Below are positions 2,247 to 61,715 of a stretch of 64,000 bases of DNA, piece after piece. The notes beneath the pieces were generated by a model, which was not told where the DNA came from, did no database searches, and saw only the letters and a list, made by a program, of their open reading frames with translations. Each line of letters opens with the position of its first letter. The stretch's first letter is position 1. The stretch is from Novipirellula aureliae (GTDB lineage Bacteria; Planctomycetota; Planctomycetia; Pirellulales; Pirellulaceae). A program made the position numbers and the translations under genes. The DNA lies in the NCBI RefSeq assembly GCF_007860185.1, contig NZ_SJPY01000003.1:682001-746000 (forward strand), given 5' to 3'.

Positions 2247-2310
2247 GTAGCGTAAGCTTCCAGCTTGCGATTTGCGGTTAGGGAACGCAAGCTGGAAGTT
2301 TACGCCACGA
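2247..2310. repeat. Paired triloop hairpins after folK
   Basis: Two hairpins face each other. CGTAAGCT-TCC-AGCTTGCG (2251-2269) folds with 8 pairs (one G-T wobble) around a TCC triloop; the second (2286-2304, arms around GGA) is an imperfect inverted copy of the first. Together they could also form a larger stem acting as a transcription terminator for folK. The core matches the hairpins in the long repeat arrays elsewhere in the window. Confidence 0.6.
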
Positions 2311-2312
2311 AC

Positions 2313-2379
2313 CCCTCCTCCCCAGTGATATGCGACAGAATGTCCCCCTCCTCCCCAACGACATGCGACAGAATGTCGC
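2313..2379. repeat. Two tandem copies of a ~32-bp unit
   Basis: The block CTCCTCCCCA followed by R-Y-GA-Y-ATGCGACAGAATGTC occurs twice in direct succession, differing at only a few positions, about 170 bp before actA. Function unknown; it may be leader sequence of the respiratory operon or a small repeat remnant. The rest of 2380-2551 shows nothing recognisable. Confidence 0.55.
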
Positions 2380-2551
2380 ACTTCACTTTTCAAGGCTGGC
2401 AATTGTGCTCCATACCGCACAATGATATCCTGGGCCAAAAATGGTGCCTGCCTGCGACAATTTTATCCAGTCTGGTTGCAACAGAGACCGTTTTTCGGTG
2501 AAATTCTTGTCCGGTTTCTGCTCGACGTGCTTACAAACGTGGCTTTCATAG

Positions 2552-3244
2552 ATGATGCAACGGTTCCTCTTCCCACGCTGGGTCAATCGCTTTCTTCTCG
2601 TCCTGCTTGCTGCTGCCGTCGGTGGTGGTTTATTCGCTGGTGCGATGGGCGGTTTGGCGACTGATCCCGAAACCCTGAACATTGGTTACAAACCGACTCA
2701 GCCGGTGCCGTTTAGCCATGCGATGCACGCGGGCCAGTTAAAGATGGATTGTCGCTATTGCCACAACACGGTTTTCGAGGCCGCTCATGCCGCCGTGCCG
2801 CCAACGGCAACCTGTATCAATTGTCACAGTCCTGCGGACATCCAAGGCGTTACCGCGTTGTCAGCGGTGCGTGCCGACAGCGAAAAGCTCGACCCGATTC
2901 ACGAGAGCTGGGAAACGGGCAAAAGCGTTGCTTGGAAACGGATCCACAACCTGCCTGAGTTCGTCTATTTCAACCATGCCGCCCATGTTAACTCGGGTGT
3001 CAGTTGCAAGAGTTGTCACGGACGCGTCGATCAAATGGAAGTGGTGTACCAGCACGAGCCATTGTCGATGGCATGGTGCATTGAATGTCACCGCAACCCC
3101 GATCCTCATTTGCGTCCGATCGAGGAGGTTACCAACCTCGGTTGGCAACCGCCGGAGGGTTGGGATCAAGAAGCGTTTGCGAAAGAACAGCGGGAAACGT
3201 TGAATATCAACCCGCAAGTCCATTGTGCTGTTTGTCATCGTTAG
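2552..3244 (+). CDS. actA: Alternative complex III, pentaheme cytochrome c subunit ActA
   Basis: First gene of the respiratory operon. The 230-residue protein begins with a membrane anchor or signal segment (residues about 12-34) and carries five CxxCH haem-c motifs: CRYCH (67-71), CINCH, CKSCH, CIECH and a final CAVCH four residues from the end. Five haems and this gene order match ActA of alternative complex III, the quinol:cytochrome c oxidoreductase that replaces cytochrome bc1 in many Planctomycetes and Bacteroidetes. ActA passes electrons on the periplasmic side towards the monohaem subunit. Two ATGs (2552 and 2555) are adjacent and either may be used. Confidence 0.93.
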   Translation: MMQRFLFPRWVNRFLLVLLAAAVGGGLFAGAMGGLATDPETLNIGYKPTQPVPFSHAMHAGQLKMDCRYCHNTVFEAAHAAVPPTATCINCHSPADIQGVTALSAVRADSEKLDPIHESWETGKSVAWKRIHNLPEFVYFNHAAHVNSGVSCKSCHGRVDQMEVVYQHEPLSMAWCIECHRNPDPHLRPIEEVTNLGWQPPEGWDQEAFAKEQRETLNINPQVHCAVCHR

Positions 3245-3288
3245 AAAACAAAGCTAGTCCGTCACCGCCTCCACACGTATTCTTCTTA

Positions 3289-8183: not shown

Positions 8184-9624
8184 CGAAAATAGTATGTCTG
8201 ACGATAACAACACGAAGAAAGTCCACGGGACCGTTGCCGAGTACACTTCGGTCGACACGCTGCTCGATGCGTGCCGGCGGATCCGTGATGCTGGCTATAC
8301 GAAAACGGATGCGTTCACGCCATTTCCTGTGCATGGGATTGATGCGGCACTCGGTATCAAACCGACCAAGTTACCTTGGATCGCTCTTGCTGGGGGACTA
8401 ACCGGATTGACGATCGCCCTGATGATGCAGATCTGGATGAATGGGATCAACTACCCGTACATCATCTCGGGTAAACCCTACATTTCACTTCCCGCATTCA
8501 TGCCGGTTGCGTTTGAGTTAACGATCTTGCTAGCGTCCTTTGGAACGTTCTTCGGCATGTGGGCTCTCAACGGCTTGCCGAAATTCAGCAACCCGATTTT
8601 CACCGATCCGCGATTTGATCGTGCGACCGACGATCGTTTCTTCTTGTACATCGATGCAAAAGATCAAAGCTACGATCAAGCGGGCGCCGAAAAATTGCTG
8701 GCTGATACGGGTACCGAATACATCAACACAGTCGTCGAAGATGATTCACCGACCCAGATCCCCAAGTTTTTAATCACGACGTTGATCACGGTCATCGCAT
8801 TGTCATTCATCCCGGCATTGATTTTGGCCCGGATGCGAGTAACGACCAGCAGCAAGCCACGTTTCCACATTTTCCCAGACATGGACTTTTCGCCGGCCCG
8901 TGATGCCCAGCAAACGACGACACTGTTTGCCGACAATCGCGCGATGCGACCGGATGTTCCTGGAACGATTGCCCGAGGCGACATGGAAGACGATCTTGAT
9001 TTCCTAACCGGAATCAAGATGGAATCATTGGCGTTGCAGCAAATCAACAAGGAACGTCAACTTGTCGCCTTGTATCCGCAAGGGGAGGATGAAGAGAAAC
9101 CGAGTGAAGCTGCAGCAGAGCAGGGGGATGGACCGGAGAAAAGTGTGATGGACACAACGCCCTGGGTCGAGACGAATCCAGTCGAGCTAACTTCACAATT
9201 TGTCCGACAGGGCCAGGCGCAGTTCAATATCTACTGTTCGACCTGTCATGGCAGAGACGGTCGTGGTAATGGGTTGGTTCATCAACGAGCTCAACAAATC
9301 ATGGCGTCGTCATGGATCCCGCCTGCATCGATGCACCAAGACACATTGTATTCGGATCAGTATCCCGATGGGAAGTTGTTCAATACGATCAGTAACGGCA
9401 TTCGAAAGATGCCTGGTTATGCCGGGCAGATTAAGGTTCGAGATCGCTGGGCGATCGTGGCTTATGTGCGAGCACTTCAACAAAGCCAAAACGCATCGCT
9501 TGATTTCGTTCCCGATTCGCAGCAAGAGACGATCAAGACTCGCAAGGCGGAGGTAGAAAAGATGCTCAAGGAGCAGGCCGAAGCCGAGAAGAAGAAGGAA
9601 CAAGAGCGAGCAACGAAAGCATAG
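8170..9624 (+). CDS. actDE: Alternative complex III, ActD (DUF3341) fused to ActE monohaem cytochrome c
   Basis: One 484-residue frame carries two subunits that are separate in many organisms. Residues 1-190 match ActD (DUF3341): a soluble start ([20 protein letters not shown]) and two membrane helices (about 70-95 and 110-135). A third helix near 200-215 leads to a cytochrome c domain with C356-S-T-C359-H360 and a likely axial Met in RKMPGYAG; this is ActE. The C-terminus is a Lys/Glu-rich coiled coil. Two starts are possible: ATG 8170, overlapping actC, or ATG 8194 (MSDDNN). No frame break lies between the halves, so it looks like a true fusion. Confidence 0.92.
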
Positions 9625-9811
9625 TAGCCCAGGCTTCCAGCCTGGGACACAACCCGTAGCCCAGGCTTCCAGCCTGGGACACAACCCCGTAGCCCAGGCT
9701 TCCAGCCTGGGACACAACCCGTAGCCCAGGCTTCCAGCCTGGGACACAACCGTAGCCCAGGCTTCCAGCCTGGGAAGAAAACCAAACCCAGGCTAGAAGC
9801 CTAGGCTACGA
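9625..9811. repeat. Five tandem hairpin repeats plus one inverted copy inside the operon
   Basis: Directly after the actDE stop, a 31-33-bp unit repeats five times, each containing CCCAGGCTTCCAGCCTGGG, a perfect 8-bp stem around TCC, joined by GACACAACC spacers. A sixth, diverged copy (CCCAGGCT-AGA-AGCCT) follows in the opposite sense at about 9786-9811. The array sits between two subunit genes of one complex, so it would be transcribed in the middle of the mRNA. Confidence 0.9.
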
Positions 9812-19242: not shown

Positions 19243-19961
19243 CGTTCCGTCGCCTGCTCATACGTGGGCGTCGATGGAAACCAATCATCACAGGCTAGAT
19301 GCCTATGCTACGTTCCGTCGCCTGCTCATACGCGGGCGTGGATTGAAACCAACCATCACAGGCTAGAAGCCTATGCCACGTTTCGTCGCCTGCTCATACG
19401 CGGGCGTGGATTGAAACCAACCATCACAGGCTAGAAGCCTATGCCACGTTTCGTCGCCTGCTCATACGTGGGCGTGGATGGAAACCAATCATCACAGGCT
19501 AGAAGCCTATGCCACGTTTCGTCGCCTGCTCATGCGCGGGCGTCGATGGAAACCAATCATCACAGGCTAGAAGCCTATGCTACGTTCCGTCGCCTGCTCA
19601 TACGTGGGCGTCGATGGAAACCAATCATCACAGGCTAGATGCCTATGCCACGTTCCGTCGCCTGCTCATGCGCGGGCGTGGATGGAAACCAACCATCACA
19701 GGCTAGATGCCTATGCCACGTTCAGTCGCCTGCTCATACGTGGGCGTCGATGGAAACCAATCATCACAGGCTAGATGCCTATGCTACGTTCCGTCGCCCG
19801 CTCATACGTGGGCGTCGATGGAAACCAATCATCACAGGCTAGAAGCCTATGCCACGTTTCGTCGCCTGCTGATGCGCGGGCGTCGATGGAAACCAACCAT
19901 CACAGGCTAGAAGCCTATGCCACGTTTCGTCGCCTGCTCATGCGCGGGCGTCGATGGAAAC
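19243..19961. repeat. 68-bp tandem repeat array, ten full copies and a partial one
   Basis: Units begin at 19243 and every 68 bp to 19923, where a 39-bp partial copy ends the array. Each has CGTTYCGTCGCC, a variable CATACGTGGGCG/CATGCGCGGGCG segment, GGAAACCAAYCATCACAGGCT and AGGCT-AGA-AGCCT or AGGCT-AGA-TGCCT. Copies differ at few positions and there are no unique spacers. The AGGCT-AGA-AGCCT part folds into the same triloop hairpin as other arrays in the window. Confidence 0.95.
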
Positions 19962-21557: not shown

Positions 21558-22041
21558 CCTGACGCGAGAGGCATTTCGGCGCGAAACCGGGAAAATAGCT
21601 GGAGTAAACCGAACACACCATTCGGGTGGTTCCTTCCAAGCGACTTTGAGGTTGCTTTATAGAGGACGATAGCAAGGTAGCGATTCAGCACGCAATAGCG
21701 GAACTTTTGACTGTATCGATTCGTCAAAGGGGGCCGAGAGCAGGGGGAAACCGACTTTACGCATAAAAGTGACTGCAAAATCGATAAAGTCTCTACTACA
21801 GACGATTTTCGTTGCTTGCTGACAATCCACAATTAGAATCCGAAGCAGGCTCTGCCTACAAAACACCCAAAAGTCTTTTTTTACCCAAAGCACTTAGATT
21901 AACGCTCCGGGTAGTTTTAGTCGATTTCAGCTTCCATGCAGGAATCGCGTGAAAGCTTGCGAGAAGGTAATTGAAGTCGAGTTTGCAGAATCCCACGTCC
22001 CAACTTAGCCAGTCAATTGGCACTGAACACGAGGCTGTTTG
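21558..22041. promoter_or_regulatory. Divergent intergenic region before the giant gene
   Basis: 484 bp between the leftward TPR gene and the rightward 16.6-kb gene. It must carry both promoters, but I cannot point to a convincing -35/-10 pair. A short AGGC-TCT-GCCT hairpin at about 21847-21857 has the same TCT triloop as other repeats of the window. No supported gene. Confidence 0.4.
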
Positions 22042-25000
22042 ATGACAAACCGTAAATCGAGCGTTCGAGACGGTATCCAGAAGAGCATTCGAAATATGAC
22101 GGGTCGCTTGCGCGCCAAGCGTCGTCGCAGCGAACGCCGTTTGCTAACGGAAACCCTAGAATCGCGTCAATTATTGGCCGGTCCCGAGCTTATCGGGATT
22201 CAAAGTGACGTCGCGACGACCGAGGGGAGTCTTTTCAATGATTTTGAGACACTGCGTACCGATTCGTTGCCGTTGGGCAATGTGGTTTTATCTCAATCAC
22301 CCAACGAATTAACCTTTCGGTTTGATGACAATGCCAACATCGACCCTGAATCGCTCGCTGGCATCACAATCACTCGCGCGGGTGCGGACGGTTATTTCGA
22401 AGCCGCCAGCGCTGTAAATGATTTGGGTACCGGTACGGAATTGCTTGAATACCGAGCGACTTCGAGCGGGTTGTCAGGAAACGGAACGACGATTTTGTAT
22501 CGCCAGCAAAATCGCGGGAATACGGGCACCCCCGTCACGGCGACCGTCGATACGTCGGGCGCTGCTCCGATCATTACGCTCAGCCTCAACAGTGCCTCGG
22601 GACGGCCTGCGACGTTGGGGGATGTGGTTGGTTTCATCAACAACACCGCATCGGTGAATCGTTACATCACCGTCCAGCAGCTATCGCCTGCTTCGGCAAC
22701 GGCAGTGGGAACGACGGTGGATACAACCCGGTCGGTCGTTTTGCAGGGTGCGAATGCGTCACAAGCGGTGACCGATTTAGGGACGGGTGGATCGGTCAGT
22801 GTTCGTTTGGTGGCCGCACAAACGGGTGCCACAGGAACCGGAACCACAGTCGTTGTCACACCGCAAGACTTTAACGGTCCGGGCTTACCGCGAGTCTTGG
22901 TCTCGGGCAAAACCGTCAGCATCACGGTCAACTCCAACGCGACCTTTGCAACCACGGTCGATCAGTTTATCGCTGCGATCAACTCGAACTCGCTGGCGAG
23001 TGAACTTGTAACCGCATCTCTCCAGATCGGTTCAGGTTCCACTTTGATGGGCAATCGAACCGTATTCTACTCGCCACTGGTCCTCTCCGGCGCCAGTGAC
23101 GAAGTGCTGACACCGGGTTATGTCGGGTTGGGTGAATCGAACCGTGAAATCGTTTTCCGTTTTGCCGAAGCGCTTCCCGATGATACCTATCGGATCGACA
23201 TCAGTGCATCGGGCACACTTGGGCTTCGCAACGAAGACGGCGAGTACTTTAACGACGGAACCAGTGTCACGGGACAATTCGTGGTTGATGGTGGCCCGAA
23301 GATTTTAGCGGTTGTCCCGCAACCAGTGACGCGAAATACGGATGGCACGCTCGCCGTCGCATCCAACGTTGTGGAAGTTCATGTCGACGGTGGTGATATC
23401 GATCAAGCGACCTTGACGAATCGGAATTACTATCGCTTGATCTACACGCGTGACACGTTGACCACTCGGGATGATTATGAATTGCTTCCCAGCGCGGTCA
23501 CCTACAATCCAATCACCAAGATCGTTCGCCTCGAATTCGCAAATGCGCTTTCGCGTGTCGCTGATCCATTGAATCCTGGTCAATTTATCGACGGAGCGGC
23601 AAGGCTGAGGATCGGGTCGAGTGAACCGATCAACATTGCTCCTAAAGAGCTCAGTTTCCAAACCGATGCACCGGATAGTTTTTCGGACGCGTTCAATTTG
23701 AATAGCCAATGGGCGATCAGTTCAAATCCCAACGCGGGCATCCAATTGGCACAGATTTCGGGTGAGATCAGCAACACCTCCGCCTACGAATTGGAATTGC
23801 CCGGTGGGTCCGATGTACCGGGCATTCGCGACATCCGTCCTGATGATCCGTCACGATTAGAGCGAACGATTCCACTCGACGTATTGCGTCTCGGTGCGGA
23901 CAACGAAGCGGGAATCACCGAATTCCAATACGATTTCGTCGACAATTGGCAGGGTGACGACCCGAACAAGCCGGGGATTGATGAATCCAAAACCTATTTC
24001 AATCTGATCACCGAACAACAGAAAGCTCGGGTTCGCGAAGTACTCTCACTGTTTAGCGAATACCTGGGCGTCCAGTTCATCGAAACCAGCGGTGGTTTGA
24101 CCAGCCAGGCGTCGTTCTCGATCGCCGTGGGTGAATTGTATGGCGCCGATGCTAGCGTCAATAGTGCCGCCGCCCTTCGTGACGCCGACGGCAACGCGAT
24201 TCTCAATACTCCCGAAGCCATTGTCCTAGCGACCCGCGACCGCAACCTTGATGGCGTCGACGATTTAGCAGTACTCGATTTCCAGGACTTCGATCCATCG
24301 ACGATTGATCAAATCGGCGGGGAGTTTTTCCGCGGTGCTTTCCTGGCCGTTGGACAGTTGCTCGGATATGGCTACGCGGACAGTTTGCCACAACCCGTTA
24401 CCCAAAGCACAGCTTCGGTATTGAATCCCGGGACCGACAATGAACCGGCCTTCCCGAGCGTGGCGGATATTGTCAACGGACAATACATGTACCGTCCCGA
24501 GAGCAATGACATCGACCTCTATTCGTTCACGCTCGATCAGCAGGGTACGATTAGCATTGAAACGTTGGCAGAGCGATTGCCGACGTCCAGCCTGCTCAAC
24601 ACCGCCCTGCGTTTGTATGCGGTCGATGGCGATGGCTATGTGGAGATCGCCGCGAACGACGATTACTTCAGCAACGATTCACTGATCGAACTCGAACTTG
24701 AAGCGGGCACCTATGCCATCGGCGTTAGCGCATCGGGCAACACCACCTACGATCCAACGACAGCGGGTAGTGGCTACGGCGGCTTAAGCGAAGGCACGTA
24801 CCAATTGAACTTGGGATTTCGAGCCTCTGCTGCCGACGCGATTCGCGACACCGCCGGCAATGCGATTGACGGTGACCTTGATGGAACACCGGGCGGACTA
24901 TTCAATTTCTGGTTCGTCCCCAATGATCCCAACACGACTCTCTATGTTGACAAAGCGGCGACGAATCCCGATTTAAACCGAGCGACCTCCAACCCGTATT

Positions 25001-28000
25001 TGAACATCGATGACGCCATCCGTGATGCCCGCCCTGGGGATACGATTCGTATCGTTGGAAACGGTGGTACCGATGGTGACCTGAGTACCGTGGCAGACAA
25101 CTTGGCTTATGAAATCGGCCTTGACAACCGCGGTATCGCGCTCGCTGACGGTGAATCGTTGGTCGCGCCACAAGGCGTCAACATCGTTGTCGATGCTGGT
25201 GCGGTTTTCAAAATGCGTCGTAGCCGTGTGGGCATCGGCAGCACCTCACCGCAGGTCGACTTGAGTAACTCGTCTCTACAAATCCTCGGCACCCCGACGA
25301 TCATCGATTCGTTCGGTCGTCCTGCGTTGGATGACGATGGAAACGAGATCCCCGGTAGCGTCATCTTTACGAGTTACAACGATGACTTGGATCCCGATCA
25401 ACCCGACAGCGCCCGCGAAGGGGATTGGGGCGGTATCGACTTCCGAGGCGACATCGATTCAGCGGATGAATCGCGAGTGAACCTGGAAGACCAAGGGATT
25501 TTCCTGAACCATATTCAGTTCGCGGATCTTCGCTATGGTGGTGGACAAGTCTCGATCAACGGCCCGCAAGTCGCCATCAGCCCGATCGATATGGCAGTGA
25601 CACGGCCCACGATCATTAACAGCAGCATTCGCTTGTCAGCGAATTCTGCGATGTCGGCGACTCCTGATACGTTCGCGGAATCGCGATTTACCCAAGAGCA
25701 ATTGTCGGGTGTCGATTTCACCCCTGATATCAGCCGCGTGGGGCCGCACATCCGCGGTAATACGATTGCCGACAACTCGATCAACGGGTTGTTTATTCGT
25801 GTCGCCACGCGAACCGGAAGTGTCCTGCAACCGCTAACCGAAACCGCACGATTCGACGATACCGATATCGTCCATGTCTTGACCGAAAACCTTGTCATTC
25901 AAGGAACGGCTGGCGGTCCGATCCAGAGCATCGATGCTCCTTCGAGTCTGCTGATCCGCGTGAGTGATTCCGACACCGCAGGCATCCCGCTTGAAGGTGA
26001 AGTGTTGTCGGGTAGCTATCAGTATCGGGTTACGTTTGTTGACTCGTCAGGCCGCGAATCGGACCCAAGTTTGGCGACCGCCACGTTTGATCTTGAGGAA
26101 GACGGTGCGATGCGGCTGACGGGACTACCAACGGTTCCTGCAGGTTCGCTGTTCAGCGCTCGTCGACTCTATCGAGCCACGGTCGCTGCCGACGGAACCG
26201 TAGGCGAATTTCGACTCGTGGGATCATTGAACGCCAGTCAGACGAGTTACATCGACGCAGCCGTCGCGGGAACGGACTCACTTCCCGAAGCGGCGCAGAA
26301 CATCACCGCACGTTTGAATCCAGGCTTGACGATCGATCCAGGCACGGTGTTGAAGATGAATCGGGCACGCATCGATGTGACGCTCGGTGCACACTTCTAC
26401 GCCGAGGGAACCGAGCAACGGCCGGTCGTGATGACCAGTTTGTCGGATGATCGCTACGGTACCGGAGGAACGTTTGACAGCGACGACACAGCGAACTCGG
26501 AATTGACGGCCGGTGATTGGGCGGGGCTATATATCGGTTACGGGGCAACCGCCTCGATCGACCATGCCGTCATCGCGGGCGGAGGTGGAACCGCAACGAT
26601 TCAAGGTGGCTTCGCTAGTTTCAATGCCATCGAAGTTCATCAAGCGGACCTGCGTTTGGCCAACAGTCGGTTGGAACAGAATGCGGACGGTCGTGGCTTC
26701 TACAACACGAACCTTCCCGACCGCGCCGGACACGGCGATAACGAAAGCGGTACGGTCTTCGTCCTGGCGTCTCAACCCGTTATTGTCAATAACGATTTCA
26801 TCGACGGCCTAGGGCCAATGGCCTCGTTCGATGTCAATAGTTTCTCGTTCAATGAGGTCACCGACTACGGACGTTCGACCTACACGTCAATGAGTTACAG
26901 CGACAATGACGATTCGGACCCAATCAGCTCTGTCTCATCCATCGGTAACAGTGGTCCTTTGGTACAAGACAACCGGATCTCCGGTATCGTGGATGAATCG
27001 GATGACGATGATGACGACGATGATGAGGATGACGACGATGATATCGTCGCTGCCACGTTCGGGCTTAACGGGATGGAAGTCCGTGCTGGGCAAGTGACGA
27101 CCGAAGTGGTTTTTGACGATGTCGACATCGTCCACATCGTTCGCGGCTCGATCGAGGTTCCGAACCAATACATTTATGGCGGACTTCGTCTCGAATCCGA
27201 TGCACGCGGCAGTTTGGTAATGAAATTCGAAGGATCCGATGCCGGCATCGTCGCTGGGGGCACGTTGGCCACCGCTGAAGATCAGTTCGTCGACATCGCC
27301 GACCGCATCGGCGGCAGTCTGCAAATCGTCGGCCATCCCGACTTCCCCGTCGTCTTGACCGCATTGGTCGATGACACGATCGGCGCGGGCTTTACCCCCG
27401 AAGGACTGCCTGCTCTTGACACCAACAACGATGGGATTCGCACTTCGATTCTGACAAGCGAAACCGCTGGCGAAGCGACACCAGCCGGTCTTCCCGTTGG
27501 ACCTCAATATGATCGTACCGATATTGAAGTCGACAACGGAACCACCATCGATAATGACATCGATCAAAATGTGGTTGGATTCTTTGAAGCCACCGTTGAA
27601 AGCGGATCCGCAGTCACTGACATTTTGGTGACGGGTATCGATCAAGCAACCGCCACGCAACTCGATCAACAAAACTATGCTTTCTTGGCAACCACGATTG
27701 TGGACATCGATCTTGACTCTGGGTTCGCCAATCCCGCTCCGTTTACGTTGGCGGAAACGACCATCACTCGCCCAGCGACTTTGGTGAGTCCAGACCGAGT
27801 GGTCAGCGAGGGATTGTTTACCGACTTATCAGAAGAGGAGGATGGCGAACGACAATTCCAGTGGATCGCGTCGACGTTTATTCTTGACAATCGTTCGATG
27901 ATGTACACGACCATCGATATCATTTCCGTCGATGGACGCGATATTAATGCGGGTGCGGTCCGTAGCATTCAAGTGACTAGCTACTTCACTCACGGTGCAG

Positions 28001-34000: not shown

Positions 34001-37000
34001 GTGATGCAAGTGAGTACGTCGACAGCGCTGCCGCAGCGACATTCCGCACCTTTGCAACGAACGATCGATTGACGAGTGGATACACGTTGACGGCAATGCC
34101 TGGCAGTATGGTTGTCGACGGTGCGACCTTTACCGTATCGGGTCTTGGTTCACCGCTCACGTTCGAGTTCGATATTTTTGATGCGTTCGGCGTCAGCGAT
34201 GGACTCAATAGCGGGACTTCACAAACCGCGATTCGGATCAGCGAATCGGCAACGGCAAACGAAGTCGCCAACGCCGTCCTCAATGCTCTGCGCAGCAGTA
34301 CGGTCAGCCAAATTGTCGATATCTCAGCAACGGGAGCGAACGGCAACCTTGGTTTCCAACAATCGCAACCCGATACCATCGCCTTGATGGGAGATAGCCG
34401 CGTCAATGTCTATGGCGACGTCATCATCACCGCAAACGATGGAGCATTTGCGGAAGTCGAGCTATTCGACCTTCGCGGGGACGAAAACCGTGACCGTAGT
34501 GACCAGGGTGTTATCATTATCGAAAACAGCCGCTTCGTGTTTAACTCCGATGCTGGCATCGATTTGAATCGTAGTTCGGGAACGAGTGTGACTGGCGTCG
34601 ACGAAACCGATCTGAGCGCCTCGGCAATCGTTTATCCTCGAAACCTAGTCGTTCTGAACAGCGAAAACTTATTGCCAGGCGTCGTGGTACAAAGCAACGT
34701 GTTGGCCTTTAATGCCAATGCGGGTATCCGCATGACCGGACTTGGCGATGCCGGCGGAACACAGCGTGATCCAATCTGGTTCGATCGCATTGTGAACAAC
34801 ACCATCGTCGGAGGAAACGTGAACGAAGCAGCCGAGTCGTTCCCGGATGTGTACAACGATACGGTCTTTGATCACGGTGAAATCTCCTTCGCCGATTCGG
34901 TGATCAGCTTTACGGCTGGAGCCAATGTCACCCCAGGGTTTGATGATCCCACCCGAGCACTCGGTGTACCCGATGCAGGTGGCAGCGGGGTTGAACCGAC
35001 CGATGGTGAGTTCACCACGTCACTTGGGCGACGCGGGACAATTACCGTTGCATTTACCGACAACTATTTGACCGGTAGCGGCGACGCGCGGCCTGACTTG
35101 ATCGTGTTTGAAACCGGCTCGATTGAAGGAGTCATGGTCGAGGTCAGCCGCGACGGCAGCACCTTCATCAACGTGGGTATCATCGGCGGTATCGACTCGA
35201 CCATCGATTTGGACTCAGCTGGCTTCGGTGCTCATGACCGCTTCGGATTCGTTCGCTTGACGGACCTAGCCCAAGGCACACTGACGACCGGAGCCGTCGG
35301 TGCGGACATCGACGCCGTCGGCGCACTTTCAACCGTTGCTGCGGACATCTACATCCCCGGTAGCCAAGGTGTTGTGGTCCAAGATGGTGCGGCACCGACG
35401 ATTTTGAACAACGTCATTGCGAACACCCAAACCGGGCTAGCAGTTGATGACGCGAGTTCAAAAACGGTCATTGGTGGAACCAGCTATTATCGCAACGCAA
35501 CCAATGCCAGCAACAACCAAGTACAAGAGAACGGTTTTGATGCTCAATTGATTCCTTCGGCTCAAGAAGTCTTTATCGATCCAGTACAATTGGTGTTCAC
35601 ACCGCGTGCCAGCACGCCCGTCATTGACAGCTCGATCGACTCGCTTGAAGATCGCCAATCATTGATTTCCGTGAAGGGAGCGATTGGACTTTCGCCGAGC
35701 CCGATCATCGCACCTCGGTTTGATGTGAACGGTCAATTGCGAGTGGATGACCCCAGCGTCGATACGTCGACCGGTTCAGGCGAAAGCGTGTTCAAGGATC
35801 GTGGTGCCGAAGATCGTGCCGATCAAGTTGGACCACGTGCGGTTCTCGTGACGCCACGAGCCCCGGATATTGGAATCGATGGCGGACTTGCTGTTACCGC
35901 GATTGGTGACATCTACACCTCGTTCGATATTCAATTGATCGATGGTATCGCACCGGCCGACCCAACACCGGGCGTTGGAATCGATGATTCAAGCGTGACC
36001 GGGGACGCGATCCTGGTCACACGTGACGGCGAGACGCTCGTCGAAGGCGAAGACTATCGATTCGGTTACGATCCATCGAACAATGTCATTCGTTTGACAC
36101 CGCTCGCCGGTGTTTGGATGAGCGACTCGGTCTACGTGATCCGTCTACTCGATTCAAGCGATGCCGTCCTCCGCGTCAGCGAAGGATCGACCTATAGCGA
36201 TGGTGGTTTAACGACCGTGATCGGACTCGACAACTCGTTCACAACGCTTGAAACCGACACCGGAATCAGCATTGTTGTTTCTCCTGACTTGTTCGGCGAG
36301 GACATCGAAGGGCAGTCGATCGAGATTTTCGATGGTTCCCGAACGGTTACCTTCGAGTTGATTACCGAAGGTGAGGTGTTTGGCGACACCGTTGGTGTCT
36401 TGGTTCCTGAGACGTTTAACGTCGAGCAAATCACGACCGCGTTGTCCGATGCGATCAACAATGCCGGCCTAAACGTGACGGCGAACTCGCTTGACAATCG
36501 CATTCAGTTGCTCGGCTCATCGACATTGACAACAGCGGTGCCGCTAACCGATGCGTTCACCGTGACAGTCACCACTACCGACATCCTGATGTCCTCTGAC
36601 TTGGTTGGCTTGGCCGACGGCGAAACGGTCTTGATCAGTGACGGCGTCGATTCGGTGACTTTTGAATTCGATGACGATGGTGTTCAATTGATCGCCGATA
36701 GCACTTTGGTGCCTGTGTTGATTACCGATTCGACGCGTCAATTGGCTGAAGCCCTCAATACAGCGATCGCAACGACCACTTTGAATGTGACCGCGACGAC
36801 GACGGACAACCGAGTTACCTTGTTGGCCGATTCGCCGTTCGCGATCGCGACGGCCAGCAGCGAGGCCATTCGCATTGTCACCACCATCGACGGCCCGACA
36901 ATCGGCACGTCGGTTGGCTTCGGCATTCGCGTGCCTAACGACGGAGCGGCTCTTGATGCCTCGGTTGTCGATGGTCAAACCTTTACGATCCAAGCCGGTG

Positions 37001-38686: not shown

Positions 38687-39251
38687 TAGTGGATCTTGTT
38701 TTTGACGTGGCTGGGGCTTCCAGCCCCAGTTGAGAAGTACGCTGCGGCTGGAAGCCACAGCCACGAAACACGCAGCCTACGGCTTTTTGCAAAATGCTCT
38801 AGTGGATCTTGTTTTTGACGTGGCTGGGGCTTCCAGCCACGGTTCAGAAGTACGCTGCGGCTGGAAGCCACAGCCACGAATCACGCAGCCTACGGCTTGT
38901 TGCAAAATGCTCTAGTGGATCTTGTTTTTGACGTGGCTGGGGCTTCCAGCCCCGGTTCAGAAGAATGCTGCGGCTGGAAGCCACAGCCACGAATCACGCA
39001 GCCTACGGCTTGTTGAAAAATGCTCTAGTGGATCTTGTTTTTGACGTGGCTGGGGCTTCCAGCCCCAGTTCAGAAGTATGCTGCGGCTAGAAGCCACAGC
39101 CACGAAACACGCAGCCTACGGCTTGTTGAAAAATGCTCTAGTGGATCTTGTTTTTGACGTGGCTGGGGCTTCCAGCCCCAGTTCAGAAGTATGCTGCGGC
39201 TAGAAGCCACAGCCACGAAACACGCAGCCTACGGCTTGTTGAAAAATGCTC
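38687..39251. repeat. 113-bp tandem repeat array, five copies
   Basis: Copies begin at 38687, 38800, 38913, 39026 and 39139, all 113 bp. Each holds GTGGATCTTGTTTTTGACG, a perfect hairpin CTGGGGCT-TCC-AGCCCCAG (one copy is degenerate), a second hairpin GCGGCT-GGA-AGCCAC, and CACGCAGCCTACGGCTTGTTG. It lies between the end of the giant gene and an IS1380 end. Confidence 0.95.
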
Positions 39252-39528
39252 TAGCCCGGATTATTCACGAGACACCAAACAAAAAGGGCCTTTCTTGCGT
39301 CTAAGTGTTTAACAACAAAGCACTTTCGACAAACAAGGAAGACCCTTCATGAGTTTACAGTCTGCGCAGCAATTTGTCTTCGGCTTTTGGGACAATAAAC
39401 CGATCGAATTTGAGCAAGTCGAGGAGAATCTATCCTCCGATGGCGGACTGATCGCCTTCTATCAGCTCGATCAAAAACTCGGTGTAATAAACGAGCTGAA
39501 TCACGAGGATTCGCTCACTTGGTGTTAA
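39252..39528 (+). pseudogene. Truncated IS1380-family transposase with its left end
   Basis: A sequence like an IS1380 terminus (CCGGATTATTCACGAG, about 39256-39271) directly abuts the last 113-bp repeat. About 80 bp on, the ATG at 39349 opens a 59-codon frame ending at 39528. Its start (QFVFGFWDNKPIEFEQVEEN) and LSSDGGLIAFYQLDQKLGV match the N-terminus of IS1380 transposases, typically over 400 residues long. Everything past about residue 50 is missing; the IS110 element begins about here and may have interrupted it or arrived later. Confidence 0.7.
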
Positions 39529-39585: not shown

Positions 39586-40908
39586 ATGAATTCTACTGCA
39601 ATCTCAATGTCAAAATCAATTCTTTTAGATCAACAAAACCAAAATACATCTGATGCCGTCAGAATCGTTAACGTCGCCTTCGATGTTGGCAGTGATTCGC
39701 TGTTTTGGGCCATGGAATTCTCGGGGAAATCAATCAGTGGCGAGTGTGAGAACAACAGTTCCGAAATACGCACAACGCTCGAAGGTATCCGCAACGAAGT
39801 CCAACAACACGGTGACTGTCAACTTCGCGTCCTCTGTGAGTCAACGGGCATCTATCATCGACGACTCTTGCAGCTGGCCGATGAACTCGGCATGCGAACC
39901 GCGTTAGTCCATGGAGAAGCGGTCGCCAAGTACCGCACCATTCAATTCGCCGATCATGGCAAGACCGACCAACGAGATCCGAAAGCGGCTTTGACGGTTG
40001 CCAAATTTGGCAAACTGATCAAAGACCGTAAGCTTGGGAAACACTACGCGCAGCTGCGAGAACTTCATCGGTTGGTACTCCGCTGTGAAGCCCGCATCAA
40101 GGTTGCTAAATGCGAACTGCACGCCGACTTGAGAACTCTGTTTGCTGATCTTCGATTGGACAAGTCGGTGTTGTACGGACCGACCGGCCGTGCGCTGATT
40201 GAACAGTTCGCTGGCAACCCGCACGCGATTGTTGCGGTGGGCGAGGAAGTCTTCTACGCACGAATGAAGTCTTGCAGTAAGAACACCAAAACGGCGACTC
40301 TGAAAAAACTTTGGCAAGCCGCTAACGATACGGCAAGCAATCAAAAGGATCACTTGTCCGCCACACTTGCCGAAATCCGAGCCACCGCCGTTCGGCAACT
40401 TTATGCGGAAATCACGGCATTTTCGCAGCGGCAACGAAAAATCGAAGGTCAAATGCAGGAGCTTTACCTGACGCTTCAAACTTCCGATCCGCGGCTTCCA
40501 GGTCCACGCAAGGGAGTCGTCACGCTTCGGATGCTCTCGCGTTTGGTCGCCGAGACCGGACCGCCGGATGATTTCCGCAGGCTCTCGCAGTTGATGCGTT
40601 ATGCAGGGTTGAACTTGTGTGAACGTCAAAGTGGCAAATGGCGTGGGCGGACGACGATCAGCCGTCGCGGCCGCAGTGAACTACGTTACGTGTTGAACTT
40701 GATGGCGATTCCGCTGGTCGGTCGGCAGAAGCTTTTTGGCGACTACTACTGGAAGAAGAAGGACGCTGACAAAATGCCGGGGCAGAAGGCGAATGTTTGC
40801 GTGATGCGAAAGATCTTGAAAATGTTTTACGGTTGGTACAAGAGTGGCGAGCCATTCGATCCGGAGCGTGTCTTTGTGATGGCAAGCGAGCACGCTAAAG
40901 CGGCCTAG
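39586..40908 (+). CDS. IS110-family transposase (DEDD recombinase)
   Basis: A 440-residue recombinase. The N-terminal RuvC-like DEDD domain shows NVAFDVGSDSLFW (first Asp), CESTGIYHR (Glu) and ADHGKTDQRDPKAA (last two Asp). The C-terminal Transposase_20 region has the serine-type domain signature GLNLCERQSGKWRGRTTISR followed by GRSELRYVLNLMA. Such enzymes insert a circular element at a short target directed by an element-encoded RNA. The gene is intact. The N-terminus is longer than usual by about 30 residues, and ATG 39607 (MSKSILLD) is an alternative start. Confidence 0.93.
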   Translation: MNSTAISMSKSILLDQQNQNTSDAVRIVNVAFDVGSDSLFWAMEFSGKSISGECENNSSEIRTTLEGIRNEVQQHGDCQLRVLCESTGIYHRRLLQLADELGMRTALVHGEAVAKYRTIQFADHGKTDQRDPKAALTVAKFGKLIKDRKLGKHYAQLRELHRLVLRCEARIKVAKCELHADLRTLFADLRLDKSVLYGPTGRALIEQFAGNPHAIVAVGEEVFYARMKSCSKNTKTATLKKLWQAANDTASNQKDHLSATLAEIRATAVRQLYAEITAFSQRQRKIEGQMQELYLTLQTSDPRLPGPRKGVVTLRMLSRLVAETGPPDDFRRLSQLMRYAGLNLCERQSGKWRGRTTISRRGRSELRYVLNLMAIPLVGRQKLFGDYYWKKKDADKMPGQKANVCVMRKILKMFYGWYKSGEPFDPERVFVMASEHAKAA

Positions 40909-41100: not shown

Positions 41101-41436
41101 CGACATGGCCAATGAGTAAGATCAAGTGATTGCTCCAAACGAGAGCCCAAACGCGAACTTTGCCAGTCTAGGATTTGGTTCAATGTGTGAGCCGAAGCAA
41201 CGAATCAGCGAAGTGCACACACTAAAAATCAACACAAAGTTGCGCGCAAAAAGGGGAGGAGTCAACTCCAAGTTCAAGCATGGTCCGGGCTTCAGCGGCT
41301 TAACGCGAGCTCGAAGTATCGGCTCGCTTGCCGCTAGGGCGCTTGACAAGCAAGCGTAAAGCGATCTTTTGGTTCTCTTTTCTTGGTTTGAAGCGAAAGT
41401 GTAAAGCGGTTTAGTAGGACACCGCCACTTAAGTAT
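41101..41436. other. Gene-poor stretch after the IS element
   Basis: No coding region I can support. Short frames on both strands lack family features. Confidence 0.4.
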
Positions 41437-41595
41437 CGGTGGCATCCTGCCGCCGGAATCCGGAACGTTAAACAATATGTCGGCGGAATCCGGAACGTTA
41501 AACAATATGCCGCCGGAATCCGGAACGTTAAACAATATGCCGCCGGAATTCGGAACGTTAAACAATATGTCGGCGGCAGGATGCCGCCGCTACGT
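41437..41595. repeat. 30-bp tandem repeat, four copies, between inverted flanks
   Basis: The unit CGGCGGAATCCGGAACGTTA plus AACAATATGC recurs four times (one copy has GAATTC). The array is bracketed by GGCATCCTGCCGCC on the left and its reverse complement GGCGGCAGGATGCC on the right, so the whole block could fold back as one large stem with the repeats in the loop. Confidence 0.85.
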
Positions 41596-48560: not shown

Positions 48561-48585
48561 GTCCCGTCACCTGAAGGCGATAACA

Positions 48586-48918: not shown

Positions 48919-49248
48919 TCGTTCGTTGCTGGAGGATGTTCAATGAAATGTTGCGATGATTATCCCTTTTCGCGGTCGTTTGACAAGGCGATTGAATCCG
49001 AGGCGAAGGCGTGAGCGTTTATCCGATTGGTTCAATCCAATGGATCGTGTTCTCAAGCATTTTCGTGTTCTCAAGCATTTTCGGGGCCGTTGTGGGACAA
49101 GCTTCTAGCTTGTTAGCGGTTTGATATCAGGCAAGGGTGCCTGTTCCACGCGGGGCGCACCAAAAATCGGACTGTTCAAAACGTTCTTTTCGGCAACAAT
49201 AGCTTGCCTACAAACAGAACTCCGCTCAATCCAGAGAGTCCTCCTGAA
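48919..49248. other. Divergent intergenic region with a triloop hairpin
   Basis: 330 bp without a gene. It contains a direct repeat (GTTCTCAAGCATTTTCG twice, about 49049-49083) and the perfect hairpin ACAAGCT-TCT-AGCTTGT at 49097-49113, the same design as the array hairpins, here as a single copy. CAGGCA-AGG-GTGCCTG follows at about 49131. Confidence 0.6.
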
Positions 49249-51564: not shown

Positions 51565-51732
51565 ATGAGATTTGTTATCGCATCCATAATGTTGATTGCG
51601 TCGGTCAGCGTGATGGGCTGCCAAGAAAAAAAGCCCGAGGTTTCTTATGATTCATCGGACGTCGAAAGGTATTTGGACGACCACCCTGAGTTGAAAGAGG
51701 AGCCAGCGAACTACGATCCTGCTAACAGTTAA
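51565..51732 (+). CDS. Small lipoprotein next to DUF1559 gene
   Basis: 55 residues: signal RFVIASIMLIASVSVMGC with the lipobox Cys at residue 19, then a short acidic mature part (YDSSDVERYLDDHPELKEE). Small lipoproteins of this build commonly follow DUF1559 genes. ATG 51565 is preceded by GAAAGAATTGATCGT. Function unknown. Confidence 0.75.
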   Translation: MRFVIASIMLIASVSVMGCQEKKPEVSYDSSDVERYLDDHPELKEEPANYDPANS

Positions 51733-51862
51733 CAGTCGCTTCACGGAAACAATCGGGGCTCGCGACGATGGGAACGACACCGATGCTACCCCTTTGGCGA
51801 ACTTGTCGAGTGCCTTGCCAACGCTTGACTTTCGTCTTGACAAGAGAGTGGCTGGGGCATCT

Positions 51863-52545
51863 TGCCCCAGTATGCTGCGGCTGGAAGCCACAGACACGAA
51901 AGATGCCTGTCCCAGTATGCTGCGGCTGGGAGCCACAGACACGAAAGATGCTTGCCCCAGTAAGCTGCGGCTGGAAGCCACAGACACGAAAGATGCTTGC
52001 CCCAGTATGCTGCGGCTGGAAGCCACAGATACGAAAGATGCTTTCCCTAGTATGCTGCGGCTGGAAGCCACAGACACGAAAGATGCTTGCCCCAGTAAGC
52101 TGCGGCTGGAAGCCACAGACACGAAAGATGCTTGCCCTAGTATGCTGCGGCTGGAAGCCACAGACACGAAAGATGCTTTCCCTAGTATGCTGCGGCTGGA
52201 AGCCACAGACACGAAAGATGCTTGCCCCAGTAAGCTGCGGCTGGAAGCCACAGACACGAAAGATGCTTGCCCCAGTAAGCTGCGGCTGGAAGCCACAGAC
52301 ACGAAAGATGCTTGCCCCAGTATGCTGCGGCTGGAAGCCACAGACACGAAAGATGCTTGCCCCAGTATGCTGCGGCTGGAAGCCACAGACACGAAAGATG
52401 CTTGCCCTAGTATGCTGCGGCTGGGAGCCACAGACACGAAAGATGCTTGCCCCAGTAAGCTGCGACTGGAAGCCACAGACACGAAAGATGCTTTCCCCAG
52501 TATGCTGCGGCTGGAAGCCACAGACACGAAAGATGCTTCGTTGTG
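51863..52545. repeat. 45-bp tandem repeat array, fifteen copies
   Basis: CTGCGGCTGGAAGCCACAGA, then CACGAAAGATGCTTGCCCCAGTA, begins at 51874 and recurs every 45 bp fifteen times. Variation is limited to TATG/TAAG, CCCC/CCCT and TTGC/TTTC positions. The hairpin is TGCGGCT-GGA-AGCCACA. Because 45 is divisible by three, several frames stay open across it; none is a real gene. It lies between two convergent genes. Confidence 0.96.
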
Positions 52546-52583
52546 ACAAGACGCTCGTTCGTTGGTCCGACACCAAGAGAACC

Positions 52584-52964
52584 TCATTCACGGTGGGGGG
52601 GCGACGCGCTACGCTTGATCGCAGCGTCGAGCTCCGCTGCACCAAAGGGTTTCACTAGATAGTCGATGATGAATTGGTTTGGCAGAGCGGATGGTCGATC
52701 AAGCGATGAAATCATGATGATGGGAACCGAGTATTGCTTGGCAATCTTTTCGACCGCTTGTATCCCGTCGAGTCTCGGCATCATAACATCGGTGATAATC
52801 AAGTCGGGTGGGTCTCGCTCGACAAGTTCAAGCAACTCGACTCCATCAGCCGCTTGACCGATTAGATGGTGCCCCAATCGTGGCAAGAGTCGTTCGAAGT
52901 ATTCACGGATGTCTTGCTCGTCATCAGCGATCAAGATTCTTAGTGAGCAAGTGGTTGGCAACAT
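52584..52964 (-). CDS. Receiver-only response regulator
   Basis: 126 residues from ATG 52964, overlapping the kinase gene by 41 bp; the frame stays open upstream within that gene. All receiver residues are present: Asp14-Asp15 (IADDEQD), phospho-acceptor Asp59 (IITDVMMPRLDG), Ser in MISS and the lysine of YLVKPFG. No output domain, so it must act through another protein, as CheY or Spo0F do. It is clearly paired with the kinase. Confidence 0.92.
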   Translation of the reverse strand: MLPTTCSLRILIADDEQDIREYFERLLPRLGHHLIGQAADGVELLELVERDPPDLIITDVMMPRLDGIQAVEKIAKQYSVPIIMISSLDRPSALPNQFIIDYLVKPFGAAELDAAIKRSASPPHRE

Positions 52965-58262: not shown

Positions 58263-58273
58263 CACACATTGTC

Positions 58274-58350: not shown

Positions 58351-58375
58351 TCCCTAAATCATTGGAGAATCAAAA

Positions 58376-58768: not shown

Positions 58769-58850
58769 CGTGGTGCATGCTTACTGTGAATTTGCTTTTT
58801 CCCCTCACTCACGCTGGTCTCCAGCGTGTCAATCATAAGGAAACGTTACC

Positions 58851-59309: not shown

Positions 59310-59365
59310 TAGCGGTTTCACCGTTTCGGCGGCGACGTAAACGCGTTTGAGCCGGTGGCGTGTCG

Positions 59366-59466
59366 GGCTGTCGATTGAATCGTTTAACGCTTAGCCGAAG
59401 GCGTCAGCTTTTCCGTAAGCGGTCGCCTATAGCTTGTCGTTAAACAATCAGTCGAGTCAAACCGAT
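59366..59466. repeat. 100-bp inverted-repeat element, copy B
   Basis: Reverse complement of the 44404-44503 element, with about four or five substitutions. Outer bases CGATTGAATCGTTTAACG and CGTTAAACAATCAGTCGAG pair imperfectly, so it can fold into a long hairpin. The rest of 59310-59642 shows no gene. Confidence 0.85.
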
Positions 59467-59642
59467 TAAATCGACAGGCCGGTGTGCCACCGGCAAGGGC
59501 GTGTCGACCGGCTGGCGGTGATTTCTTAGCCGTCTGTTTGAAGCGTGCAAAGAGACAAAGCAACCATCCAATAGATCAGGCAACGCGTCGCCGGTTGCTA
59601 TTCGTTTGGTCCATTCTTGCCAACGGCTGTTCCCATTTCGTA

Positions 59643-60560
59643 TCAGCGGGGTGTCCCGGCGCGAAGCTTTTCCAGTTCGGTCACGATTTTTCCATTGGCA
59701 AAGATCGTCACGGTGCCCGTTGACTCGCTGACCGCAACTGCGACGGAATTGGTGACTGCAGTGACACCGGCTGCGGAGTGATGTCGCGCGCCAAGCCCGC
59801 GTGGTAGCGAGTATTCCTCCTCATCCCGGAGCGACGTCTTCAAATAGGCTCCACACGTTTCGATGATTCCGTCGCCCCGCAGGATAAACGCGCCGTCGAT
59901 GGTGGAAAGCTCTTTGACGGTCTCCTCGAGTGCTGGATCCAGTACGTTTCTCTCCTCTCCGGAGTATCCGCGAAACGGATTGATAATCAATTGTTTCGAC
60001 AATGAGACGACTCGCTCAGCGTCGCCAATCACAAACAATGCACCGACCGCCTTGCCCTCACGACCTTCACTGCCGAGTTCCGCTGCAATCGCGACAATCC
60101 GATCGATCACTTCAGCCGAAACGCCCTCCGGCAAGTATTCACTCGTTCCAATGGCTGCCATACTGTCAAACTCATCGCCAACTTTGGTAACGAAAAGCGT
60201 ATCAATCGAATGTTTCTCCGAAGAGCCTGTGAGGCACACGACCGTGTCATCCCGCTGGATCAAATTGCTAGAGAGAGCCAAGAACATCGCAATTTTGACC
60301 TGGCCAAAACGACTCAGATTCACGTCCGGAACACGGATATAGCGTTGTCGGTGATTCGATAATCGATGGTTATCCGCCGATGATTTTGTAATGTAGATCA
60401 ACCGACAGTCATGATCCGCATCGAGCTCAATCTGTTGGTTCTCTAACGCGTCGGAGTAGACGAAAATCGCATTGGCGTGACAGTCGCGTGCGACTGAAAC
60501 GGCATGGCGTAGCAACGATTGCGTGGTGTTGGTTTGCGATGTCGAATCGTCAGAAGTCAT
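59643..60560 (-). CDS. Diadenylate cyclase (DAC domain, DacZ-like)
   Basis: 305 residues from ATG 60560; the frame stays open to 60830 but that part lacks family features. The N-terminal half (LLRHAVSVARDCHANAIFVY ... KIAMFLALSSNLI) resembles a pyruvate-kinase C-terminal-like fold seen in DacZ proteins. The C-terminal DAC domain has DGAFILRGDGIIETCGAYL and GLGARHHSAAGVTAVTNSVA then VAVSESTG. These make cyclic di-AMP from two ATP. The canonical D-G-A is present; R-H-R reads R-H-H. Cyclic di-AMP governs osmotic and potassium balance. Confidence 0.85.
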   Translation of the reverse strand: MTSDDSTSQTNTTQSLLRHAVSVARDCHANAIFVYSDALENQQIELDADHDCRLIYITKSSADNHRLSNHRQRYIRVPDVNLSRFGQVKIAMFLALSSNLIQRDDTVVCLTGSSEKHSIDTLFVTKVGDEFDSMAAIGTSEYLPEGVSAEVIDRIVAIAAELGSEGREGKAVGALFVIGDAERVVSLSKQLIINPFRGYSGEERNVLDPALEETVKELSTIDGAFILRGDGIIETCGAYLKTSLRDEEEYSLPRGLGARHHSAAGVTAVTNSVAVAVSESTGTVTIFANGKIVTELEKLRAGTPR

Positions 60561-60879
60561 CGATTTCAATACTGTAGCTGATGGGAAAGCCGAGAGGTGT
60601 CCAGGGCATGTCTTTGGCAAAGCGAACGATCCGTGAACGATCCGTGAACTCACTGCAACGGTCGTGCCAGAGCCTACCTTGGTGGGGCAACTTCCAACCG
60701 AGACGCCGAGTCCCACCGCCGCAGACGCCGCTTTGGCATTCTTAGCCCGGCTAATGCGCAGACTGTTTTTCGACCAATGAACGTAAACGCTTTGCTGCAT
60801 GGGAGTTATCGAAACATTATGCGAACCCATGAATCATCCGGGTTAGTGCTTTGTCACCACGAAGAATACGGGTAAGCAT
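60561..60879. other. Upstream region of the diadenylate cyclase gene
   Basis: About 320 bp containing the cyclase promoter and an open extension of its frame without homologous features; CGTGAACGATC is duplicated at about 60630. No other gene supported. Confidence 0.35.
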
Positions 60880-61715
60880 CTTTCGTGTCTGTGGCTTCCA
60901 GCCGCAGCTTACAGGAGCAAAGATGGCCCAGCCACTCTTTGGTCAAGCCTAAAACCAAGATGTGGATTCGTGTCTGTGGCTTCCAGCCGCAGCATACTGG
61001 GGCAAAGATGCCCCAGCCACTCTTTGGCCTAGCCTAAAACCAAGATGTGGATTCGTGTCTGTGGCTTCCAGCCGCAGCTTACAGGAGCAAAGATGGCCCA
61101 GCCATTCTTTGGCCGAGCCTAAAACCAAGATGTGGATTCGTGGCTGTGGCTTCCAGCCGCAGCATACTGGGGCAATATGGCCCAGCCACTCTTTGGCCAA
61201 GCCTAAAACCAAGATGTGGATTCGTGTCTGTGGCTTCCAGCCGCAGCTTACGGGAGCAAAGATGGCCCAGCCACTCTTTGGCCAAGCCTAAAACCAAGAT
61301 GTGGATTCGTGTCTGTGGCTTCCAGCCGCAGCTTACGGGAGCAAAGATGGCCCAGCCACTCTTTGGCCGAGCCTAAAACCAAGATGTGGATTCGTGTCTG
61401 TGGCTTCCAGCCGCAGCTTACAGGAGCAAAGATGGCCCAGCCACTCTTTGGCCGAGCCTAAAACCAAGATGTGGATTCGTGGCTGTGGCTTCCAGCCGCA
61501 GCATACAGGAGCAAGATGGCCCAGCCACTCTTTGGCCTAGCCTAAAACCAAGATGTGGATTCGTGGCTGTGGCTTCCAGCCGCAGCTTACAGGAGCAAAG
61601 ATGGCCCAGCCACTCTTTGGCCGAGCCTAAAACCAAGATGTGGATTCGTGGCTGTGGCTTCCAGCCGCAGCATACTGGGGCAAGATGCCCCAGCCACTCT
61701 TTGGCCTAGCCTAGA
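60880..61715. repeat. 85-bp tandem repeat array, about ten copies
   Basis: Units start about every 84-85 bp from 60880 and contain CCAAGATGTGGATTCGTG, KCTGTGGCTTCCAGCCGCAG, then CTTACAGGAGCAAAGATGGC and CCAGCCACTCTTTGGCC. The hairpin TGTGGCT-TCC-AGCCGCA is the reverse complement of the one in the 45-bp array. The frames running through the array are not genes. Confidence 0.95.

What the first reader, a model, noticed from the sequence alone, without database searches (positions are those of the whole stretch)
2251..61700. One triloop hairpin core shared by unrelated repeat arrays across the window
At least seven intergenic loci (2.25, 9.62, 19.2, 38.7, 49.1, 51.9 and 60.9 kb) contain a short stem closing a TCC/GGA or TCT/AGA triloop. 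Arms differ but stay paired: CGTAAGCT/AGCTTGCG, CCCAGGCT/AGCCTGGG, AGGCT/AGCCT, CTGGGGCT/AGCCCCAG, ACAAGCT/AGCTTGT, TGTGGCT/AGCCGCA. The flanking units are unrelated in sequence and length (31, 45, 68, 85, 113 bp). Conserved loop with compensatory stem changes implies the fold, not the sequence, is kept. I infer a REP-like or RNA element family able to amplify in place.
Basis: partly seen in the sequence, partly recalled or inferred. Interest (0 to 1): 0.75.

Follow-up and report, generated by a model that had tools for sequence, protein, structure and literature searches.

The report
REP hairpins with matching tyrosine transposases
The hairpins scattered through this window are copies of a mobile-DNA hairpin (a REP element) that occurs in hundreds of copies in this bacterium, sits beside its own single-strand transposase genes and has seeded local tandem repeats; it is a large, clean new example of a known kind of element, not a new kind.

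Summary
RGCTTCYAGCY occurs 46 times in exactly the seven loci named, against 0.07 in shuffles; an eighth locus lies at 41.43-41.59 kb. The genome holds 737 matches against 1 in the reversed-pattern control. These are REP elements of the GTAG superfamily, often paired tag-outward as REPINs. Four RAYT (REP-associated tyrosine transposase) genes in this genome are each flanked by hairpins with their own stem. Over 19 RAYTs, stem distance tracks transposase distance (Mantel r 0.40, 0 of 10,000 permutations). The stem variants are therefore best read as transposase-matched subfamilies, not one RNA drifting. Two sister species carry 29 and 30 copies against 636 and have empty sites at the two loci compared. 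Tandem arrays are a second step: REPINs, or parts of them with flanking DNA, repeated in place, probably by replication slippage (inferred). Tandem REPINs beside matching RAYTs are published for Pseudomonas fluorescens SBW25. New here: scale, a shared triloop plan, a lineage burst.

The parts
2247..2308 (.). REPIN: REP + at 2247-2269 (GTAG.CGTAAGCT.TCC.AGCTTGCG), directly after a TAA stop, and a REP - at 2286-2308 with one mismatched pair
9624..9809 (.). Five + REPs (GTAG.CCCAGGCT.TCC.AGCCTGGG, spacing 31-33 bp) and one - REP at 9787-9809; the first G of the first tag is also the last base of the cytochrome gene's TAG stop
19243..19961 (-). 68-bp x 10.6 array; - REP GTGG.CATAGGCT.TCT.AGCCTGTG in 6 of the units, altered core in the others
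38687..39254 (.). 113-bp x 5 array; each unit is a REPIN (CTGGGG + REP, CTGTGG - REP; RAYT-A type) plus flanking DNA, array ends share TAG
41433..41593 (.). Eighth locus: REPs + 41433-41455 and - 41571-41593 (C.GGTGGCA/C.GGCGGCA stems, TCC loop; RAYT-C type) with a 30-bp x 4.3 array between them
49092..49114 (+). Single REP GTGG.GACAAGCT.TCT.AGCTTGTT
51848..52538 (.). REP + GTGG.CTGGGGCA.TCT.TGCCCCAG at 51848-51870, then a 45-bp x 15.1 array of - REPs (CTGTGG; RAYT-A type); the unit begins in the loop of the + REP
60882..61728 (.). 85-bp x 10 array with a + REP (GTGT/GTGG.CTGTGGCT.TCC.AGCCGCAG; RAYT-A type) in each unit; last unit also has a - REP at 61675-61697

Best explanation
The hairpins are REP elements, often paired tag-outward as REPINs, of several sister subfamilies with one plan: GTRN tag, 8-bp stem, TCY triloop. 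Each subfamily is probably recognised as folded single-stranded DNA, on the tag strand only, by its own RAYT, a HUH/Tyr single-strand transposase encoded elsewhere in the genome, which nicks and rejoins near the tag and spreads the elements, mostly into intergenic DNA (catalytic steps inferred from the E. coli enzyme). After insertion the hairpins favour local tandem duplication of all or part of the REPIN with neighbouring DNA, most likely by replication slippage or template switching, so units differ in length and flank from locus to locus. Shown here: shared form, copy number, RAYT adjacency with matching stems, two empty sister sites, array anatomy. Inferred: mobilisation and the cause of tandem growth.
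For: 737 copies against 1 in the control. 251 of 267 sites found by the 9-base core alone have at least 7 of 8 pairs, and 243 of the 256 with at least 6 pairs have a GTRN tag. Four RAYTs of one clade in this genome are flanked by their own stem type: A CTGGGG/CTGTGG, B CACAGG, C CGGTGGCA, D CGCGTCTC. Of 47 RAYT loci (5 in this genome, 42 in relatives), 14 have a tagged 8-3-8 hairpin with TCY loop within 500 bp against a shuffle mean of 0.08. RAYT and REP distances correlate, n 19. RAYTs keep HxH, Tyr and NP in 18 of 18 aligned, and the RAYT-A model's best PDB match is 4er8, a RAYT bound to a REP hairpin, E 3.9e-6. Sister species: 29 and 30 copies against 636; two orthologous 3' regions lack the hairpin in both. 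Stem wobbles read as G.T on the tag strand, 139 against 12 A.C. In 19 of 24 REP arrays the first REP is + and the last is -.
Against: No movement was observed. 33 of the 47 RAYT loci have no TCY hairpin within 500 bp in the 8-3-8 scan (24 have no tagged hairpin at all); RAYT-D needed a looser form, one base more between tag and stem. Of the 13 Y1_Tnp matches in this genome only two (A and C) have such hairpins within 1.5 kb. All four RAYTs score below NCBIfam's curated cut-off for RAYTs (54.7-72.5 against 80), and B and D below Pfam's. The stem types of the 9.6, 19.2, 2.25 and 49.1 kb loci were not found beside a RAYT here in exactly that form, apart from a hybrid CCCAGG/CCTGTG stem beside RAYT-B.
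Confidence: 0.85

Rival explanations
1. The RAYT itself builds the tandem arrays: it nicks at tags, makes circles or concatemers and rejoins them in place, so the arrays are a direct transposition product.
For: All four intact RAYTs of this clade in the genome have tandem REP arrays beside them, and some arrays begin exactly at a tag and end at a REP (L079 9933-10321; 9.6 kb).
Against: Other arrays end in unique flank or inside a hairpin (38.7, 51.9, 41.4, 60.9 kb, L101), at no constant distance from a tag.
Confidence: 0.25
2. They are structured RNA elements (mRNA 3' ends, terminators or processing sites) kept by selection at the RNA level.
For: Stems covary and keep G.T (G.U) pairs on one strand; two loci start at a stop codon; 21 of 26 loci are intergenic.
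Against: No Rfam match at gathering score; both orientations at one locus; absent from the two orthologous sites tested in two sister species; stem sequence follows the RAYT. An RNA side effect is not excluded.
Confidence: 0.08
3. Chance short hairpins in intergenic DNA.
For: At stems of 5 pairs the window's locus count (10) equals the highest of 200 shuffles.
Against: Core 46 against 0.07, stems of at least 8 pairs 12 against 0.07; genome 737 against 1.
Confidence: 0.005

Closest known systems
GTAG-tagged REP superfamily (Di Nocera, De Gregorio, Rocco 2013, PMC3733652; abstract, sections 5, 14, 16 and passages seen)
   Same: GTAG/GTGG tag, stems mostly 6-9 bp, loops often 2-3 nt, stem subfamilies with complementary changes and G.T pairs, repeat-specific REPtrons, tandem reiteration with flanking DNA of variable length; Rhodopirellula baltica is named as having several REP families.
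   Different: Here head-to-tail neighbours dominate (51 of 71 close pairs) where the paper calls them absent or rare in most genomes; one TCY triloop plan is shared over four RAYT pairs. Figure 1 of the paper, which shows the families, is not held, so I cannot say whether this exact family is in it.
REPINs of Pseudomonas fluorescens SBW25 (Bertels and Rainey 2011, PMC3116915; passages seen)
   Same: Paired REPs as the mobile unit, three REPIN groups each clustered beside its own RAYT, tandem REPINs including flanking sequence; the authors also infer a second mechanism for clusters.
   Different: There the largest cluster has four REPINs; here arrays reach 15 units, and units often hold one REP or part of a REPIN.
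E. coli TnpA-REP and related TnpA-REP/REP pairs (Corneloup et al. 2021, PMC8266576; abstract and passages seen)
   Same: HUH/Tyr fold; the published enzymes act on one strand of tag plus hairpin and co-evolve with their REPs; GTGG tags are also cut by one of them.
   Different: The planctomycete-type RAYTs here are longer (221-236 aa as called) and divergent (16% identity to 4er8); their activity is untested.

Membership tests
GTAG-tagged REP | Short (20-40 nt) palindrome in high copy | tested here: met
   23 nt, 737 copies against 1 control
GTAG-tagged REP | GTAG or degenerate (GTRG) tag at one end | tested here: met
   GTRN in 243 of 256 hairpins: GTGG 126, GTAG 56, GTGT 39, GTGA 19, GTAT 2, GTAA 1
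GTAG-tagged REP | Mainly extragenic | tested here: met
   21 of 26 loci outside crude ORFs that cover 81.7% of the sample
GTAG-tagged REP | Dimers or clusters | tested here: met
   Close neighbours: 51 head-to-tail, 16 tag-outward, 4 tag-inward
GTAG-tagged REP | REPs of matching stem flank a RAYT gene | tested here: met
   RAYT-A to D in this genome; 14 of 47 RAYT loci with TCY hairpins
GTAG-tagged REP | Mobilised by its RAYT | not testable with these tools
   Indirect only: two empty sister sites, copy burst
RAYT (TnpA-REP) | HxH motif and catalytic Tyr | tested here: met
   H144, H146, Y204, N208, P209 invariant in 18 of 18
RAYT (TnpA-REP) | Fold of the solved RAYT | tested here: met
   RAYT-A model pLDDT 90.6; best PDB match 4er8_A, E 3.9e-6, TM 0.42/0.58
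RAYT (TnpA-REP) | NCBIfam NF047646 curated cut-off (80 bits) | tested here: not met
   Best family for all four, but 72.5, 63.1, 71.0 and 54.7 bits; a naming threshold, not a biological feature
Described Rfam RNA family | Match above gathering score | tested here: not met
   0 matches in the window

The most novel reading that the evidence does not exclude
In this lineage RAYT-recognised hairpins are the main source of intergenic minisatellites, through a two-step cycle: transposition of a REPIN, then hairpin- or RAYT-driven growth in place. Of 17 sampled arrays 12 carry a REP type found beside a RAYT and 2 more another hairpin. One set of rules (tag, 8-bp stem, TCY loop) would let the stem sequence act as an address label that keeps four transposase/hairpin pairs apart in one cell.
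Probability: 0.3. Interest if true: 0.6.

Novelty: new member of a known kind. Interest (0 to 1): 0.4.

Why it matters
A genome with four RAYT/REP pairs that differ in stem sequence but share tag, stem length and loop is a natural test of how single-strand transposases tell their hairpins apart. The roughly 20-fold copy difference between species of one genus marks a recent burst, and the arrays give a place to ask whether REPs cause bacterial minisatellites. It also warns annotators: these arrays give a false tRNA call and long chance ORFs.

Tried and rejected
Orthology at 60.9 kb: nearest sister proteins are only 29-30% identical, so no empty-site test there. PDB by sequence for RAYT-C: two weak, unrelated hits; the fold search was used instead. 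Literature search for the core string: 20 papers, 18 titles listed, none of the titles about bacterial repeats. Rhodopirellula + tandem repeat + intergenic led to PMC6749651 (abstract and some passages), whose table gives 29 satellites for R. baltica; the passages shown do not connect them with REPs. Two searches joining REP terms with Planctomycetes each returned only PMC3733652 and PMC6006769 (passages of the latter seen). No covariance model was built: explicit tag/stem/loop scans served better for 23 nt. The RAYTs were not assigned to a published RAYT subclass. Dropped rows: of the RAYT loci fetched, L044 (duplicate of L075), L069-L073, L133 and L143-L145 (weak or partial matches) were left out of the 47; L088 and L091-L093 are longer copies of loci already in. 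The Mantel test used 19 of these loci: those with a repeated tagged hairpin, without the broken copy L081, with L080 added. The 24 arrays are not all independent (some adjoin), and REPs up to 22 bp outside an array end were counted.
Full report
What is there. The seven loci named hold 46 copies of RGCTTCYAGCY; 200 dinucleotide shuffles of the window give 0.07 on average. Around the core, copies have a GTRN tag, an 8-bp stem (T.G pairs allowed) and the loop TCC or TCT. A generic scan for GTR tag + fully paired 8-bp stem + any triloop returned 252 in 744 kb of the genome, 220 of them T-TCC-A or T-TCT-A and ten A-TCC-T or A-TCT-T; it found the eighth locus, 41433-41593. The whole genome has 737 matches to GTRNNNNNRGCTTCYAGCY against 1 for the reversed pattern, and 636 against 0 for the GTRG form.

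Is the fold kept? In the same 744 kb, 267 GCTTCYAGC sites were taken by the nine core bases alone; 251 have at least 7 of 8 pairs although the outer five pairs were not selected. In 34 REPs (33 distinct) from the window, RAYT flanks and relatives, 97.3% of 264 cells pair and 8 of 8 pairs have both-side changes; the covariation score is 1.07 against 0.23 for shuffles and at most 0.20 for slid partners. Caution: the rows from relatives and RAYT flanks came from scans that required pairing, so this count leans towards the structure; the unselected count above and the shuffled flanks are the fairer tests. Non-Watson-Crick pairs are mostly G.T when read on the tag strand (139 copies against 12 A.C and 26 other; unique stems 30, 8 and 24), which suggests that the tag strand is the one that folds. 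Deamination of single-stranded tag DNA could also contribute.

What may move it. The Y1_Tnp profile finds 13 matches in the genome; a RAYT-A query adds two more genes (B and D) and a broken copy. The four intact genes of this clade, A (L075 10099-10866, minus), B (L079 9206-9916, minus), C (L078 9231-9926, plus) and D (L080 8788-9453, plus), lie among hairpins whose stems are CTGGGG/CTGTGG, CACAGG, CGGTGGCA (and one CGGGGGCT) and CGCGTCTC respectively; D's REP has one more base between tag and stem and its 17-nt core occurs 231 times in the genome against 0 reversed. The 11 other Y1_Tnp matches have no such hairpin within 1.5 kb, apart from two weak ones at L032. The window's 38.7, 51.9 and 60.9 kb loci are type A and 41.4 kb is type C. 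The 9.6, 19.2, 2.25 and 49.1 kb loci resemble type B most, with a hybrid CCCAGG/CCTGTG stem beside RAYT-B as a link; that assignment is an inference.

Relatives. Among 60 genomes searched, 47 RAYT loci were examined: 23 have a tagged 8-3-8 hairpin within 500 bp (shuffles mean 2.8, max 7) and 14 one with a TCY loop (shuffle mean 0.08, max 1); four of the 23 (L049, L051, L054, L067) look like chance hits, and others carry GCC or TTC loops. RAYT and REP distances correlate (Mantel r 0.40, 0 of 10,000 permutations, n 19). Genomes with 20 or more copies all have a RAYT match (8 of 8, against 24 of the other 52; Fisher p 0.005), so a RAYT is common without this REP form. The AlphaFold2 model of RAYT-A (pLDDT 90.6) has as its best PDB match 4er8, a RAYT bound to a REP hairpin (E 3.9e-6, 16% identity).

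A lineage burst. Two species of the same genus have 29 and 30 copies against 636. Gene order around HPPK and the ActD/cytochrome c gene is kept (about 6.7 kb apart in G001, 6.9 kb here); the 420 nt after both stop codons lack the tagged hairpin in both sisters. G001 has one short AGGCT-TTCG-AGCCT stem at the second site. In a draw of 149 genomes of the phylum, this one included, 32 have any match and this one has the most.

The arrays. Among 17 arrays (period at least 20, at least 2.5 copies) in the window plus 16 grid stretches (384 kb), 10 hold at least two of these REPs; two more hold RAYT-D-type REPs (L103, L106) and two another hairpin, TGGATCTTGTTAAAGATC (L095, L109). In 19 of 24 REP arrays, many of them from stretches chosen at RAYTs or known arrays, the first REP is + and the last is -, as expected if an outward-tagged REPIN is the ancestor. 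Some arrays run from REP to REP; others end in unique flank or at a hairpin apex with short overlaps (3 nt at 38.7 and 51.9 kb); at 19.2 kb the extra segment is 39 nt of spacer. Slippage or unequal exchange at hairpins can explain all of these; a cut at a fixed distance from the tag cannot. That choice is inference.

Against the literature. Tag, stem and loop sizes, G.T pairs, repeat-specific REPtrons and tandem clusters with flanking DNA are all in Di Nocera et al. 2013, which includes R. baltica, and tandem REPINs beside matching RAYTs are in Bertels and Rainey 2011 (passages). So the kind is known. What I did not see in the passages read is the shared TCY triloop over four RAYT pairs in one genome, the dominance of head-to-tail neighbours (51 of 71 close pairs), and arrays of 10-15 units.

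Noticed in passing
window 9621-9704 (-): ARAGORN calls a tRNA-Ser (gga) inside the 9.6-kb REP array; it lies wholly in the REP units and is most likely an artefact.
   Followed up: partly
window 51652-52658 and 60962-61709: Open frames of 107-311 aa run through the 45- and 85-bp arrays, on both strands at 51.9 kb; probably chance ORFs of the repeats.
   Followed up: partly
window 39586-40908: An IS110-family transposase gene (PF02371, PF01548), single copy in the genome, lies between the 38.7-kb and 41.4-kb REP loci; the abstract listing of PMC8450116 says the IS ISPpu9 inserts into REPs.
   Followed up: partly
window 2312-2390; L150 and L151 after the HPPK gene: Another palindrome, TGCGACARAATGTCGC, stands after HPPK in this genome and in both sister species, unlike the REP there; its role is unknown.
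   Followed up: no
window 22039-38604: A 5521-aa open frame with a 15-bp x 13.8 repeat at 29346-29552; not examined.
   Followed up: no
L087 7910-9900; L086 8109-8985: Tandem arrays of 65 and 71 bp with other hairpins lie beside two further Y1-type transposase genes.
   Followed up: partly
L095 4567-5022; L109 19161-19278; L087 4392-4571; window 38687-39254: A further repeat containing TGGATCTTG forms arrays (GTAG before it in L087); TAGTGGATCTTG also opens each 113-bp unit at 38.7 kb.
   Followed up: partly
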